64,000 nucleotides of DNA from Mermis nigrescens (lineage: Eukaryota; Nematoda; Enoplea; Mermithida; Mermithidae). A model generated the notes under the pieces. It saw only the letters and a list, made by a program, of their open reading frames with translations. It was not told where the DNA came from and ran no database searches. Below, in pieces: positions 4,598 through 14,755 of the stretch (position 1 is the first letter of the stretch; every line of letters begins with the position of its first letter). The stretch spans positions 3,245,015-3,309,014 of the forward strand of contig JAVLUZ010000273.1 of the NCBI GenBank assembly GCA_036768485.1, given 5' to 3'. The translations under genes were made by a program, and so were the position numbers.

Positions 4598-5128
4598 TGT
4601 AATAGAATTTTATTAACATAAAATAACCTACAATAAACACATAATATTATCAAATTCTTTTTGTACCCTAAGGCTATTATTTTGATTCTCAAATATTATC
4701 AGATTATTTTAATCTTAGTAATTTCGGAAGACATACATATAATCCAATCACTCTGTCAACACACCTTCAGCATCCGTTTAAAGTCTACTAATTGCACGTG
4801 AACTCCCTAAAATCTAGTCAGTACAAAGGCAAGCCGCCTCCAAAGGCGAGTGAAAGTCATTAATTCACCATTTCCGTTTAGCACACAAACATACAAACTC
4901 AACCTCCTAAGATATCCAAAAAGGCACAACTACTTTTGGGCCCCGAGGCGTTTGTCTCATATAAAAGTTCTCCCTCACAACCCTCGGTCGGACTCTCTCA
5001 CTCTCCAGCCTCGATCTTACATGTATCGTCACGTTACTATTATCCGCCGCCTGTTATCATTATTTCAATTCCAACTGTTTTTAGCATTCTAAATAAAATT
5101 CCTAACGACACGCACCAATCCTATTCCA
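4598..5128 (+). repeat. 5' LTR of element 1
   Basis: It begins TGTAATAGAATTT and ends CCAATCCTATTCCA. It aligns along its whole length with 14223-14755 with scattered substitutions and small indels, including around 4838-4856 and 4916-4930. Confidence 0.93.
4959..5098 (+). promoter_or_regulatory. LTR promoter and polyadenylation signals
   Basis: ATATAAAAG at about 4959-4967 is a TATA-box candidate, placed some 125 bp before AATAAA at 5092-5097. Both are conserved in the 3' LTR (AGATAAAAG near 14589 and AATAAA at 14719-14724). This is the expected U3-R layout; the start site is not determined. Confidence 0.5.
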
Positions 5129-5130
5129 TC

Positions 5131-5148
5131 TGGACGACGCCACAGAGA
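5131..5148 (+). other. Candidate tRNA primer-binding site of element 1
   Basis: TGGACGACGCCACAGAGA starts two bases after the 5' LTR. The leading TGG pairs with the CCA end of a tRNA, as in other LTR elements. The tRNA species was not identified. Confidence 0.5.
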
Positions 5149-5252
5149 TTTGATCTGCACTGGCTGTTCAAAGACAATGATCAGAGACAAGTGTAAGACT
5201 AGGAGACCATACTCGTATAATAACACGTTCTCTGTCTAAGCTAAAATCTATT

Positions 5253-6230
5253 ATGCCAGATATTCACAAAATTCAAGAAGTTTTTGAGAGTCATAATGAT
5301 GAATTAGTTGAACGCATGCATGACACTATCACAACCACAATACAGAGTAACAGCCCCATGTTTCTGTCTCAAATTCAACCTCCTATATTTTCTGGAAAAT
5401 CACATTAAAATGTAGAAGATTGGTTTTTGACTTTTAGCCGTTTTTGTAATGCTCACAATCTCAGCAAACATCGCAGTATATGCCTTTTACCAACTTTTTT
5501 GCAAGGCTTAGCCTAGAATTTCTTTAACCAAACAGAACGCGGAAATGCCAATAATCCATTTACTTTACAACAATGGGCAAATGCTTTCGAAGCTGAATTC
5601 CCAATTGGACTAGATTCTGCAATTAAGGAACTACAACTTGTACATTGCACACAAAAGCAAAATGAAAGTATTTCAGACTTTGCTGTAGATATACATAGTT
5701 TAGTTAAGGCCGCATATCTGAGCTTGAGCATGGAACAGAGAGAAATTGTAACAAAAGGCGCATTCCTGAGAGGCCTTGAGCCAGAAATTAAGTATTACAG
5801 TACACTAGGTACGGAACCACAAAACCTAGATGAGGCTATTAGACGTGCATTACAGCAGGAAATTCAAGCACAAGTTTATGGCACTCCTGAAACATCACCA
5901 AAACCTGAGTTAGATGTTCTCACAACTTCTATGGACACACTATCTAAGCAGATTGCAAGTCTCACATTACAAAATAAGCCACCGCATGAGTCTTTCACTT
6001 AGGTACCTGCTCGTAGCCAAAGGCCCTGGAAATGTGTAGGTAACGAGCAGTGGACTGCTCAAGGAAGAAGTAAATGCTGGAAGTGTGGACGTTTAGGTCA
6101 TCATGCAATGAAATGTAGATCTCAATTACATGGTAATGTTTGGACATCCGGTAATAGAACCGGCAAAAATTTTAACACACAGGCATCAGGCTCACGTATA
6201 CGTAATCAGGATAATGATTGTACTGCGTAG
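5253..6230 (+). pseudogene. gag: gag of element 1 (capsid plus one zinc knuckle)
   Basis: The reading frame opens with ATG at 5253 and stays recognisable to TAG at 6228. The N-terminal region has QIQPPIFSGK (around 5370) and, shortly after, a conserved Trp in VEDWFLTFSRFC, as in Ty3/Gypsy capsids. The capsid C-terminal part reads QKQNESISDFAVDIHSLVKAAY and FLRGLEPEIK. A CX2CX4HX4C zinc knuckle lies at 6075-6116 (CWKCGRLGHHAMKC). In-frame stops occur near 5406 (TAA), 5514 (TAG) and 6001 (TAG). Predicted role: particle assembly and RNA packaging. It sits directly after the LTR and leader, and env follows after about 490 bp. Confidence 0.85.
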
Positions 6231-6720
6231 AGAACTAGAAGATGTGCACAAAAATGATCACCACAGTGGAAACATTTACAAAAATGAGAGAAAAACAAAA
6301 ATTTTTGATGAAGATCTTAACAATTGTTTTATTGAGTACAATGGATTGGAATCCTTGGGATTTCAACGCATAAATGTTGTGTCATTGGAAGGGCGGGATA
6401 GAATGAAAACAGCAAAACATGAAACTCCTGGTTCAACGTTTGTTTTGACCCACTTTCCTGCTTTGCAGTATGAAGCCACACCCATTGGTCTAGGGGAACC
6501 AGTGGCCCGCAAATAGGGTATGAAAACTTTGAACGTGCTGAGGGCAGGTCCTTTGAACCCATGAGTATGGACGCACCTAGGCCACTAATGCACAATGAGG
6601 GCAAAGCCCCTGTTTTTGAAAACTGTTTCACGACAGACATGTTGTCTTATGGCATTCACAAACCCTATAAAAATGCACGTGGAAAGGAGCTTCACTTTAA
6701 TTTCACTTCACACATGATGA
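6231..6720 (+). other. gag-env interval of element 1
   Basis: The interval carries open stretches in two frames (to 6516, then from 6561) rich in charged residues, for example RELEDVHKND and NEGKAPVFENCF. No known domain is recognised. It may encode the gag C-terminus or a leader upstream of env. Elements 2 and 3 also have a poorly conserved interval here. Confidence 0.4.
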
Positions 6721-12837: not shown

Positions 12838-12944
12838 AATTTAAAGATAAAAATCACATTCTCAATTCCAATCACAATCTTCTTACAGAGTATGTAATGT
12901 TTAATGTCATAGTGATTTTCTGACACTTCTTAGGTAAAAGCACA

Positions 12945-14071
12945 ATGTCTGCATCACAAACCAATTCCACATCAACTTCTGATTACTTTGCTTCCGCCAC
13001 TGAGAAGTGGAAGTGAAACACAACACCAACACTAGAGCAAACGCAGCTTCCCGCCAATCTCATGGAGCAGTGGGCAATGCGCTTTGGTCGGCATTCCGGC
13101 ACACTTTGACTTTTCCGGTCCCTGATAAATTGCCGGCCGACATTGCGTGCCAGGTGCTGACAAAGGATCATGCCCTTCCTGGCATATTGGCTGTTGTGAC
13201 TAATGCAAAAGAGGCAAATGTTGAAGAACATATGCATCTCGTGATTTTTTGCCCAGATGGCTTATGTTGTGTATTTGACATTGACTCCTCAGGTGGTTCA
13301 CATCACTACCTGATTGAGTTACTGACCAACCCCACCATCTTCTTCATTGGGTTTGACTTCCCCAGAAGCCTTGGCTGCCACAACCGCCAATCCCAACATG
13401 GTACCATCAACTTCAACATCAGGCAGAAGTTGGAGGAATTGGAGAAACTCAATTGCCTCCCGTTCCAGTTTAATAGCACCACCGACATCCACGCCTTGGC
13501 TCAAGACATCTTTTGTCTGGACATAGAGGTAATTCAAGATCTACTCAGCAACAACGTTGCTATCTCAACACCACTTTGGGCTGGGCTGTGCTTTGATATA
13601 TTTGCGCTAGCTGATCAGTCAAACGAGGAGATCCACAGCGCCGGAGTCAACTGGCATACCCGTAAGGTTTGGCAGGCCACACACCCATCATCTCCAAAGT
13701 CACCACCACTGAGCACTGCTACATCCGCCCTAAGACCAGATCCAACTCCTACAGCCCACAGTCGACCAACAACACCAAACACCCCACTGCAACACCTTAA
13801 AGTACCAACAACACCGCCTCAAAGCTGCAGCCTCTTAGCCACTCCTGTCTGGCCGCCACTACTAGCACCTTGAGCCGCCGTTGATATTTGAACCATCAAC
13901 ATTGAGCCTCGCTTTGGGTGTCTCATCCAAGAAATGGTGATCGAATTCAATGCCCGTTTCTACAACTGTCCGGATGCCCATTGGACAGCATGTTATGAGA
14001 ACTTCATCAAGCAGTGGAAGCAAAAGCTTCATCGCAAATTCTGCCCTGCCACCCGTGGAATTCCAGGCTAA
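12945..14071 (+). pseudogene. ORF4: GC-richer ORF downstream of pol, unknown or exonuclease-like
   Basis: The main open segment is 13007-13873 (289 codons). An ATG at 12945 in another frame probably supplied the N-terminus, with a frame change near 13090, and a third segment (about 13890-14071, EPRFGCLIQEMVIEFNARFY) probably supplied the C-terminus. Composition is clearly richer in G+C than the rest of the element. The core has CCVFDIDSSGG, FFIGFDFPRSL, TTDIHALAQDIFCLDIEVI and a Ser/Pro/Thr-rich tail. The spacing of acidic motifs loosely recalls DEDD 3'-5' exonucleases, which is weak inference. It occupies the normal env position. No similar ORF is seen downstream of pol in element 2. It may be captured host or viral sequence. 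Confidence 0.5.
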
Positions 14072-14208
14072 AGAAGCTCAAATAAAGAAGGCAATCGAAT
14101 ACCGCATCAACGTAAAGGTGGCAGGAGCCAGGAGCCGACAAAATTAGCCGTAGCTTATCTATGATTCTGTAAATTACACCACCCTCTCATTTCACCCCAT
14201 AGTCCAAT

Positions 14209-14222
14209 TGAAGGGGGAGGTA
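14209..14222 (+). promoter_or_regulatory. Polypurine tract of element 1
   Basis: TGAAGGGGGAGGTA lies immediately before the 3' LTR (TGTAATAG at 14223). This is the expected plus-strand primer site. Confidence 0.75.
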
Positions 14223-14755
14223 TGTAATAGAATTTAATTAACATAAAATAACCTACAATAAACACATAATATTATCAAATTCTTTTTGCACCCTAAGGCT
14301 ATTATTTTAATTCTTAAATATTATCAGATTATTTTAATCTTTGTAATTTCTGAAAGACATACATCAAATCCAATCACTCTGTCATAACGCACCTTCAGCA
14401 TCCATTTAAAGTCTACTAATTGCACGTGAACTCCTTAAAATCCAGTCAGTACAAAGGCAAGCCGCCTCTAAACGCACGTGGAGTCATTAATTCACCATTT
14501 CCGTTTAGCACACAAACATACAAACTCAACCTCCTAAAATATCCAAAAGGCATGACTACTTTCGGGCCCCGAGGCCTTTTGTCTCAGATAAAAGTTCTCC
14601 CCCACAAACCTCGGTCGGACTCTCTCTCTTTCCAGTCTCAATCTTACACGTATTGTCACGTTACTATTATCCGCCGCCTGTTATCATTATTTCAATTCCA
14701 ACTGTTTTTAACATTCTAAATAAAATTCCCAACAACACACGCCAATCCTATTCCT
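14223..14755 (+). repeat. 3' LTR of element 1
   Basis: It matches 4598-5128, starts TGTAATAGAATTTAATT and ends CCAATCCTATTCCT, and keeps the TATA-like and AATAAA motifs. The flank TATG follows at 14756-14759. Confidence 0.93.

What the first reader, a model, noticed from the sequence alone, without database searches (positions are those of the whole stretch)
4598..14755. A Ty3/Gypsy element with gene order gag-env-pol
The limits are fixed by LTRs and a 4-bp target duplication, so the internal order is real and not a junction of two elements. The glycoprotein-like gene (signal peptide at 6721, Cys-rich ectodomain, membrane segment near 8353-8406) lies wholly before protease and RT. In known errantiviruses, retroviruses and env-bearing BEL/Pao elements env follows pol. 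This would need different expression logic, for example pol made from a third position or by separate initiation or splicing.
Basis: partly seen in the sequence, partly recalled or inferred. Interest (0 to 1): 0.9.

Follow-up and report, generated by a model that had tools for sequence, protein, structure and literature searches.

The report
Retrotransposon with Gag-Env-Pol single polyprotein
This jumping element looks like a retrovirus relative that carries a virus-type membrane-fusion protein in the middle of one giant protein, between its capsid and its enzymes, an arrangement unlike that of known retroviruses and repeated in many related copies.

Summary
The order is real and is not a local accident. 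The window copy is a Ty3/Gypsy element (LTRs 4598-5128 and 14223-14755, TSD TATG, LTRs 93% identical) with the order gag, env-like glycoprotein, protease, RT, RNase H, integrase. This copy is broken.

Other copies in the same genome show that these are not separate genes. Gag, glycoprotein, protease and RT share one open frame, up to 2,822 codons, in 10 lineages whose RT is 43-75% identical to the window's clade. Of 31 RT matches in frames of 2,000 codons or more, 31 have the glycoprotein upstream in a frame of the same length. Seven public proteins, two of them from nematodes, have a gag marker before the glycoprotein; five of the seven continue to integrase.

The glycoprotein is of class III type (herpes gB / chuvirus) with an internal signal segment and one membrane anchor. 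Env and RT trees largely agree, and both linkers evolve mostly as coding sequence.

Best reading: one Gag-Env-Pol chain threads the ER membrane, Env luminal, Gag and Pol cytosolic. Topology, cleavage and infectivity are inferred. I found no published account in an open-licence library; one relevant 2025 paper could not be read.

The parts
4594..4597 (.). target site duplication, left copy (TATG)
4598..5128 (+). 5' LTR, 531 bp
5253..6513 (+). gag region, interrupted by stops in this copy; CCHC knuckle at 6075-6116
   Evidence: homologous regions match Ty3_capsid in 10 of 10
6474..6720 (+). linker between nucleocapsid and signal segment
6721..6786 (+). internal signal segment (in the polyprotein frame of less damaged copies)
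6721..8475 (+). class III type glycoprotein domain, in this copy broken into 6721-7602, 7662-8063 and 8071-8475
8353..8406 (+). membrane anchor followed by a basic cytosolic tail
8745..9044 (+). first retropepsin-like stretch (second protease copy of this subclade); its active-site motif is altered in this copy
9038..10195 (+). second retropepsin (PF09668 3.4e-9) and region up to RT
10192..10770 (+). reverse transcriptase (PF00078), split by a stop in this copy
10963..11343 (+). RNase H (PF17919, PF17917)
11623..12834 (+). integrase: H2C2 knuckle, core domain, C-terminal GPY motif
13004..13873 (+). 3' ORF; relatives in two other lineages match a 3'-5' exonuclease family
14210..14220 (+). purine-rich tract before the 3' LTR
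14223..14755 (+). 3' LTR, 533 bp
14756..14759 (.). target site duplication, right copy (TATG)

Best explanation
The window holds a decayed member of a diverse clade of Ty3/Gypsy elements that encode one Gag-Env-Pol polyprotein: capsid, CCHC knuckle, internal signal segment, class III type ectodomain, membrane anchor, retropepsin (two in tandem in the window's subclade), RT, RNase H, integrase. Most likely mechanism: full-length RNA is translated as one chain. Gag is made in the cytosol, the internal signal opens the ER translocon, the ectodomain folds in the lumen, the anchor stops transfer, and Pol is again made in the cytosol. Signal peptidase would cut Gag from Env and the cytosolic retropepsin would release Pol. 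The order capsid-envelope-protease-polymerase in one chain is that of flaviviruses (recalled). Shown by sequence: order, single frame, largely shared descent of env and RT, coding constraint across both linkers, kinship of the glycoprotein. Inferred: topology, cleavages, assembly at membranes, fusion and infectivity.
For: One frame of 1,733 codons through gag, env and both proteases in L012. 25 of 136 env matches are stop-free inside frames of 2,000 codons or more, by hand count (134 of 1,444 candidates scored). Ten further copies fetched as halves, 10 of 10 with gag, env, protease and RT in one frame. 31 of 31 RT matches in frames of 2,000 codons or more have env upstream in a frame of the same length. 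LTR pairs and 4-bp TSDs in 3 elements. Seven public proteins with gag marker then env, five of them on to integrase. Env regions match PF24664 in 11 of 11 and gB in the PDB at 1.1e-5. Signal core 17-33 residues before the first env cysteine in 16 of 17 chains; no NPGP skipping motif in 17 of 17. dN/dS 0.15-0.28 for the anchor-to-protease tail and 0.32-0.61 for the Gag-to-signal linker, L044 apart.
Against: No RNA, ribosome or protein data were available. The Gag-to-signal linker is under weaker constraint than the rest (0.61 in the window, 0.54 in L015, 0.76 in L044; L044 tail 1.40 on very few changes). F and H have extra weak hydrophobic segments and G shows the signal only with a shorter scan window, so the two-segment topology is not uniform. 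The AlphaFold model has low confidence (pLDDT 54.9) and TM-scores to gB are only 0.14-0.24. One polyprotein gives equal numbers of Gag, Env and Pol, unlike retroviruses. RT relatives in shorter frames were not all tested for env.
Confidence: 0.72

Rival explanations
1. The frame is continuous, but the proteins come from more than one RNA: splicing removes env to give Gag-Pol, or an internal start or spliced leader gives Env alone, and the full polyprotein is a minor product.
For: Retroviruses express Env this way (established knowledge; PMC10309623 and PMC12992720, passages). An in-frame Met lies within 20 residues before the signal core in 11 of 17 chains. No RNA data were at hand.
Against: No such Met in 5 of 16 chains (C, P0002, P0003, P0005, P0006; P0001 left out because its core was mis-placed). 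Reading frame and constraint continue through both linkers, which separate mRNAs would not require.
Confidence: 0.2
2. The captured glycoprotein no longer works as an entry protein. It serves as a membrane-anchoring or assembly domain of an intracellular retrotransposon.
For: It is fused inside the structural polyprotein; fusion activity is untested.
Against: The ectodomain keeps many invariant cysteines and other columns across lineages, and env dN/dS is 0.11-0.25 in four copies, though 0.36-0.41 in the window, L033 and L044. A mere anchor would not need this.
Confidence: 0.25
3. The order in the window is a local rearrangement or a junction of two elements.
For: The window copy is damaged, and some stretches beside related LTRs hold no env (L016 gag only, L018 LTR only).
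Against: Same order in many copies and distant lineages, with paired LTRs and TSDs where both were in hand.
Confidence: 0.01

Closest known systems
Atlas virus of the hookworm Ancylostoma ceylanicum (Belpaoviridae; PMC9094657, passages)
   Same: LTR element with gag, pol and a captured viral glycoprotein in a single stop-free polyprotein of 2,828 residues.
   Different: Env is last (Gag-Pol-Env), of class II phlebovirus type, and the element is BEL/Pao.
Dingle of Dimorphilus gyrociliatus (Ty3/Gypsy; PMC7854359, passages)
   Same: Ty3/Gypsy element with an env that resembles herpes gB.
   Different: The env-like protein lies downstream of integrase.
Anakin of mosquitoes (BEL/Pao; PMC7642597, passages)
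   Same: LTR element with a chuvirus-type glycoprotein.
   Different: BEL/Pao; the passages that I saw put env downstream of the polyprotein in the earlier env-bearing BEL elements and did not spell out the order in Anakin.
Errantiviruses / insect ERVs (PMC12992720 and PMC13172572, passages)
   Same: Ty3/Gypsy elements with an envelope gene; some gypsy elements of mosquitoes have type III fusion glycoproteins.
   Different: env is a third ORF downstream of gag and pol; in Drosophila it is F-type.
Flavivirus polyprotein (recalled, no call)
   Same: Capsid, envelope, protease and polymerase in this order in one membrane-threaded chain.
   Different: RNA virus without reverse transcription, unrelated proteins. 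Analogy of working, not kinship.

Membership tests
Ty3/Gypsy (Metaviridae) | RT closest to Ty3 among solved structures | tested here: met
   RT-RNase H of L020: Ty3 4.3e-91, ahead of caulimovirus-type 2.3e-56 and retroviruses. No tree with reference clades was built.
Ty3/Gypsy (Metaviridae) | domain order PR-RT-RH-IN with H2C2 and GPF/Y module | tested here: met
   GPY or GPF near the integrase end in 8 of 8 lineages whose frame or stretch reached it (A, B, C, D, E, G, H, I; not F, J, K)
Ty3/Gypsy (Metaviridae) | Ty3-type capsid | tested here: met
   Ty3_capsid in 10 of 10 members at E 0.01 or better, the first member below Pfam's cut-off
Ty3/Gypsy (Metaviridae) | LTRs with short target duplications | tested here: met
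   4-bp TSD in window, D and G; both LTRs not in hand for 8 of 10 fetched pairs
Errantivirus | env as an ORF downstream of pol | tested here: not met
   env lies between gag and protease in one frame
Errantivirus | F-type (baculovirus-like) envelope | tested here: not met
   Monjiviricetes_fusion in 11 of 11, gB in 8 of 11
Atlas-type Gag-Pol-Env element (Belpaoviridae) | env at the C-terminal end of the polyprotein | tested here: not met
Class III viral fusion proteins (Monjiviricetes / herpes gB type) | sequence and fold kinship | tested here: met
   fold search on a low-confidence model agrees but with low TM-scores
Class III viral fusion proteins (Monjiviricetes / herpes gB type) | membrane fusion activity | not testable with these tools
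   no experiment
Troyka | CG...CG termini, 3-bp TSDs, no envelope | tested here: not met
   TG... termini, 4-bp TSDs, envelope present (PMC12440569)

The most novel reading that the evidence does not exclude
An old and widespread clade of Ty3/Gypsy elements, in at least one protostome and in nematodes, captured a class III fusogen between Gag and Protease once. Ever since, it has made all its proteins from one membrane-threaded Gag-Env-Pol chain, so that capsid, envelope and enzymes are born tied across the ER membrane in equal numbers: a second solution to building an enveloped reverse-transcribing particle, with the gene order of a flavivirus.
Probability: 0.5. Interest if true: 0.92.

Novelty: new variant of a known kind. 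Interest (0 to 1): 0.86.

Why it matters
Env after pol, usually from its own RNA, is close to a fixed rule for retroviruses and env-bearing retrotransposons (established knowledge), and even the single-chain Atlas virus puts Env last. A clade that keeps Env between Gag and Protease in one frame through deep divergence breaks that rule. It makes testable how an enveloped retroelement can control membrane topology, protein ratios and Gag release without separate env expression. It also adds a Gypsy clade with a chuvirus/gB-type glycoprotein, where a survey of arthropods reported no clear evidence of such capture by Gypsy elements (PMC10084718, passages), although gB-like or type III env in gypsy elements is known elsewhere. 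And it shows that database entries named RNA-directed DNA polymerase can hide an envelope protein (P0006).

Tried and rejected
A nested or rearranged copy was rejected. A 2A-type skipping peptide was looked for: no NPGP in 17 of 17 chains (for the genome copies only the 5' half was scanned). Troyka membership was dropped (CG...CG ends, 3-bp TSDs, no envelope; PMC12440569, outline and parts 1-3 of 5 read). A protein search with the window's env1 piece found nothing. A viral-contig scan with the env alignment found no relative. NCBIfam gave nothing for four 3' ORFs. The host could not be named: a COX1 stretch reads without stops in the invertebrate mitochondrial code, with AGR as Ser and ATA as Met, which points to a protostome.

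Literature searches: open-licence PMC only; their listings gave no account that I recognised of a gag-env-pol element, and the string gag-env-pol had 0 papers. Apart from PMC12440569 I saw only passages of seven papers. Chary and Hayashi 2025 (eLife 108449), on envelope-carrying retrotransposons in metazoans, is not held and may bear on this; I have read nothing of it.
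Full report
What was checked. The window lies in an unnamed 524-Mb genome of 860 contigs. The element has LTRs at 4598-5128 and 14223-14755, 93.0% identical over 529 aligned sites, with TATG on both sides. Inside are gag, a glycoprotein-like region, two retropepsin-like stretches, RT, RNase H, integrase and a 3' ORF, all on the plus strand. The copy is broken: the glycoprotein region is in three pieces. One piece, 7662-8060, matches Pfam PF24664 Monjiviricetes_fusion at 1.9e-13.

Is the order a family trait? A search with 303 bases of the LTR gave 41 matches (40 of 51 candidates scored). 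Of the ten stretches first fetched beside such LTRs, five show gag, env pieces and protease in this order (L009, L011, L012, L013, L017) and one shows gag and part of env (L015). Two are 3' parts of copies (L010, L014), one holds only part of gag (L016) and one only LTR sequence (L018). Of the 16 further stretches, L022 adds gag-env-protease, L026 env-protease, L033 gag-env and L034 env-protease-RT; L023, L024, L029 and L031 gave no match to the query pieces. The copies L009 (C831), L011 (C64) and L022 (C497) are nearly identical to L012 (C45): dS 0 to 0.013 in gag, env and protease. So transposition was recent.

One frame, not three genes. In L012 a single frame of 1,733 codons runs from the first bases through gag, glycoprotein and both proteases to the end of the stretch. 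L009, by contrast, is broken into several frames. A genome search with the 293-residue env piece gave 136 matches from 100% to 33% identity (134 of 1,444 candidates scored). By hand count, 25 of the 136 are stop-free and lie in open frames of 2,000 codons or more, the longest 2,822. I then fetched two stretches each of ten more divergent copies, chosen because one search reported long frames there, so this set is selected for openness. In 10 of 10, gag, env, protease and RT lie in one open frame: the lengths of the two parts add up to the frame length, F excepted, whose frame starts before the stretch. F, J and K have a break later, after RT. BLAST found gag in seven of ten; in F, G and H gag rests on the CCHC knuckle and Pfam. 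I and J are near-identical, so with the window's clade these are 10 lineages. Their RT is 43-75% identical to that of lineage A.

An independent count by RT. A search with RT-RNase H of L020 gave 108 matches (107 of 4,354 candidates scored). Thirty-one lie in frames of 2,000 codons or more. By hand comparison, 31 of 31 have an env match on the same contig and strand, upstream of RT, in a frame of the same length. Eleven of them were not among the scored matches and appeared only when a second env lineage was searched. RT matches in shorter frames were not systematically tested for env, and candidates further from the query were not scored, so relatives without env are not excluded.

Single elements. 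In lineage D both LTRs (411 bp, 99.27% identical) are flanked by CTAC; in lineage G both LTRs (625 bp, 99.84%) by GTAG. For the other 8 of 10 pairs the stretches did not hold both LTRs.

Elsewhere in life. A protein search with the env part of L012 gave six proteins at E 0.001 or better; a second, from the Panagrolaimus protein, gave one more, from Caenorhabditis remanei. All seven have a gag marker before env. That marker is a Pfam gag match in P0001 (weak, below cut-off), P0003, P0006 and P0007, and CCHC knuckles alone in P0002, P0004 and P0005. P0001, P0002, P0004, P0005 and P0006 go on to protease, RT, RNase H and integrase; in P0001 protease is an active-site motif only, and in P0005 a weak Pfam match. 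P0003 and P0007 end soon after env. Only P0006 (Panagrolaimus davidi) and P0007 carry an organism name.

What the glycoprotein is. Of 11 aligned env regions, 11 match PF24664 at E 0.01 or better and 8 match herpesvirus gB. A profile of the 11 finds gB in the PDB, best 1.1e-5. An AlphaFold2 model of P0003 has low confidence (pLDDT 54.9, pTM 0.33). Its best Foldseek matches are herpes gB (6.9e-13) and, among viral models, a putative glycoprotein of Keturi virus (3e-22) and rhabdo-, nya-, chu- and herpesvirus glycoproteins. TM-scores are low (0.14-0.25 by query length), so the model supports local kinship only. Class III assignment rests mainly on the profile matches. Fusion is untested.

Selection. 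Against L012, env dN/dS is 0.11 (L026), 0.15 (L017), 0.25 (L013) and 0.25 (L041-L043), but 0.36 in the window, 0.38 in L033 and 0.41 in L036 and L044; L022 gives 0.33 on few changes. Protease gives 0.13-0.28, L044 apart (0.55, few changes). RT-integrase gives 0.10-0.18, with 0.32 (L034) and 0.37 (L014). Gag gives 0.17-0.53, with 0.92 in L044. The linker from nucleocapsid to signal gives 0.32 (L017), 0.33 (L013), 0.45 (L033), 0.54 (L015), 0.61 (window) and 0.76 (L044). The tail from anchor to protease gives 0.15-0.28 in five distinct copies, and 1.40 in L044 on very few changes. In broken copies, misaligned pieces raise these values. The tail is clearly constrained and the Gag linker more weakly. 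That fits translation through both.

Descent. Trees of env and of RT have 16 rows each (P0003 left out, no RT). Both hold ((A,B),C), (G,(F,H)), a group of D with E, I, J and K, and (P0004,P0005). Within E, I, J, K the RT tree is unresolved; P0001 and P0002 are placed differently in the two; P0006 is a long branch in both, and P0001 and P0005 in RT; several forks are weakly supported. This fits one capture followed by co-descent, without proving it.

Topology. In the 12 copies the 5' half holds a CCHC knuckle, then a hydrophobic segment (in G seen only with the shorter scan), then a second hydrophobic segment before basic residues, then a protease motif. Protease motifs were read in A to I and K. 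F and H have extra weak segments between knuckle and env. The signal core lies 17-33 residues before the first env cysteine in 16 of 17 chains; in P0001 the scan picked a segment 54 away. With one signal and one anchor, Gag and Pol would both be cytosolic and the ectodomain luminal. That follows from general rules of membrane insertion and was not tested.

Classification. RT is nearest to Ty3, capsid matches Ty3_capsid in 10 of 10, GPY/GPF is present in 8 of 8 lineages that reach it, and TSDs are 4 bp in the three elements tested. It is Ty3/Gypsy. It fails the errantivirus tests of a downstream, F-type env, and the Atlas test of env last.

Literature. The passages seen describe env downstream of pol or integrase in errantiviruses, Dingle and earlier env-bearing BEL elements, and a single Gag-Pol-Env chain in Atlas virus. 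No listing showed Gag-Env-Pol. The library holds open-licence papers only, and Chary and Hayashi 2025 was not held.

Noticed in passing
window 8745-9044 and 9038-10195; L012, L045-L046, L047-L048: Lineages A, B and C carry two retropepsin motifs in tandem in one chain; D to I and K show one. Whether the two act as a built-in dimer is open.
   Followed up: partly
window 13004-13873; L052:4239-5699; L064:3978-4550; L060:3-1370; L019:367-1683: A separate ORF after integrase. In lineages E and K it matches the 3'-5' exonuclease family PF01612 (2.7e-5 and 3.2e-4, the second below cut-off); the related ORFs of A and I have no match and lack the acidic motif seen in E and K.
   Followed up: partly
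P0003 model against BFVD: The best viral match to the Gag-Env chain P0003 is a 955-residue putative glycoprotein of Keturi virus (A0A894KNI7), aligned over 994 columns. That record may itself be a Gag-Env chain of this kind; its sequence was not seen.
   Followed up: no
P0001 residues 500-555: An RNA recognition motif (PF00076, 6.2e-7) sits between Gag and Env in one public polyprotein.
   Followed up: no
G000 contigs C49 and C249: The same pair of env-bearing copies, close together and in opposite directions, occurs once on C49 and twice on C249 with equal scores, which suggests segmental duplication or an assembly effect.
   Followed up: no
L065 (G000:C61:36162539-36163888): A COX1 stretch without stops in the invertebrate mitochondrial code lies inside a 48.8-Mb contig, which looks like a recent nuclear insertion of mitochondrial DNA.
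   Followed up: partly
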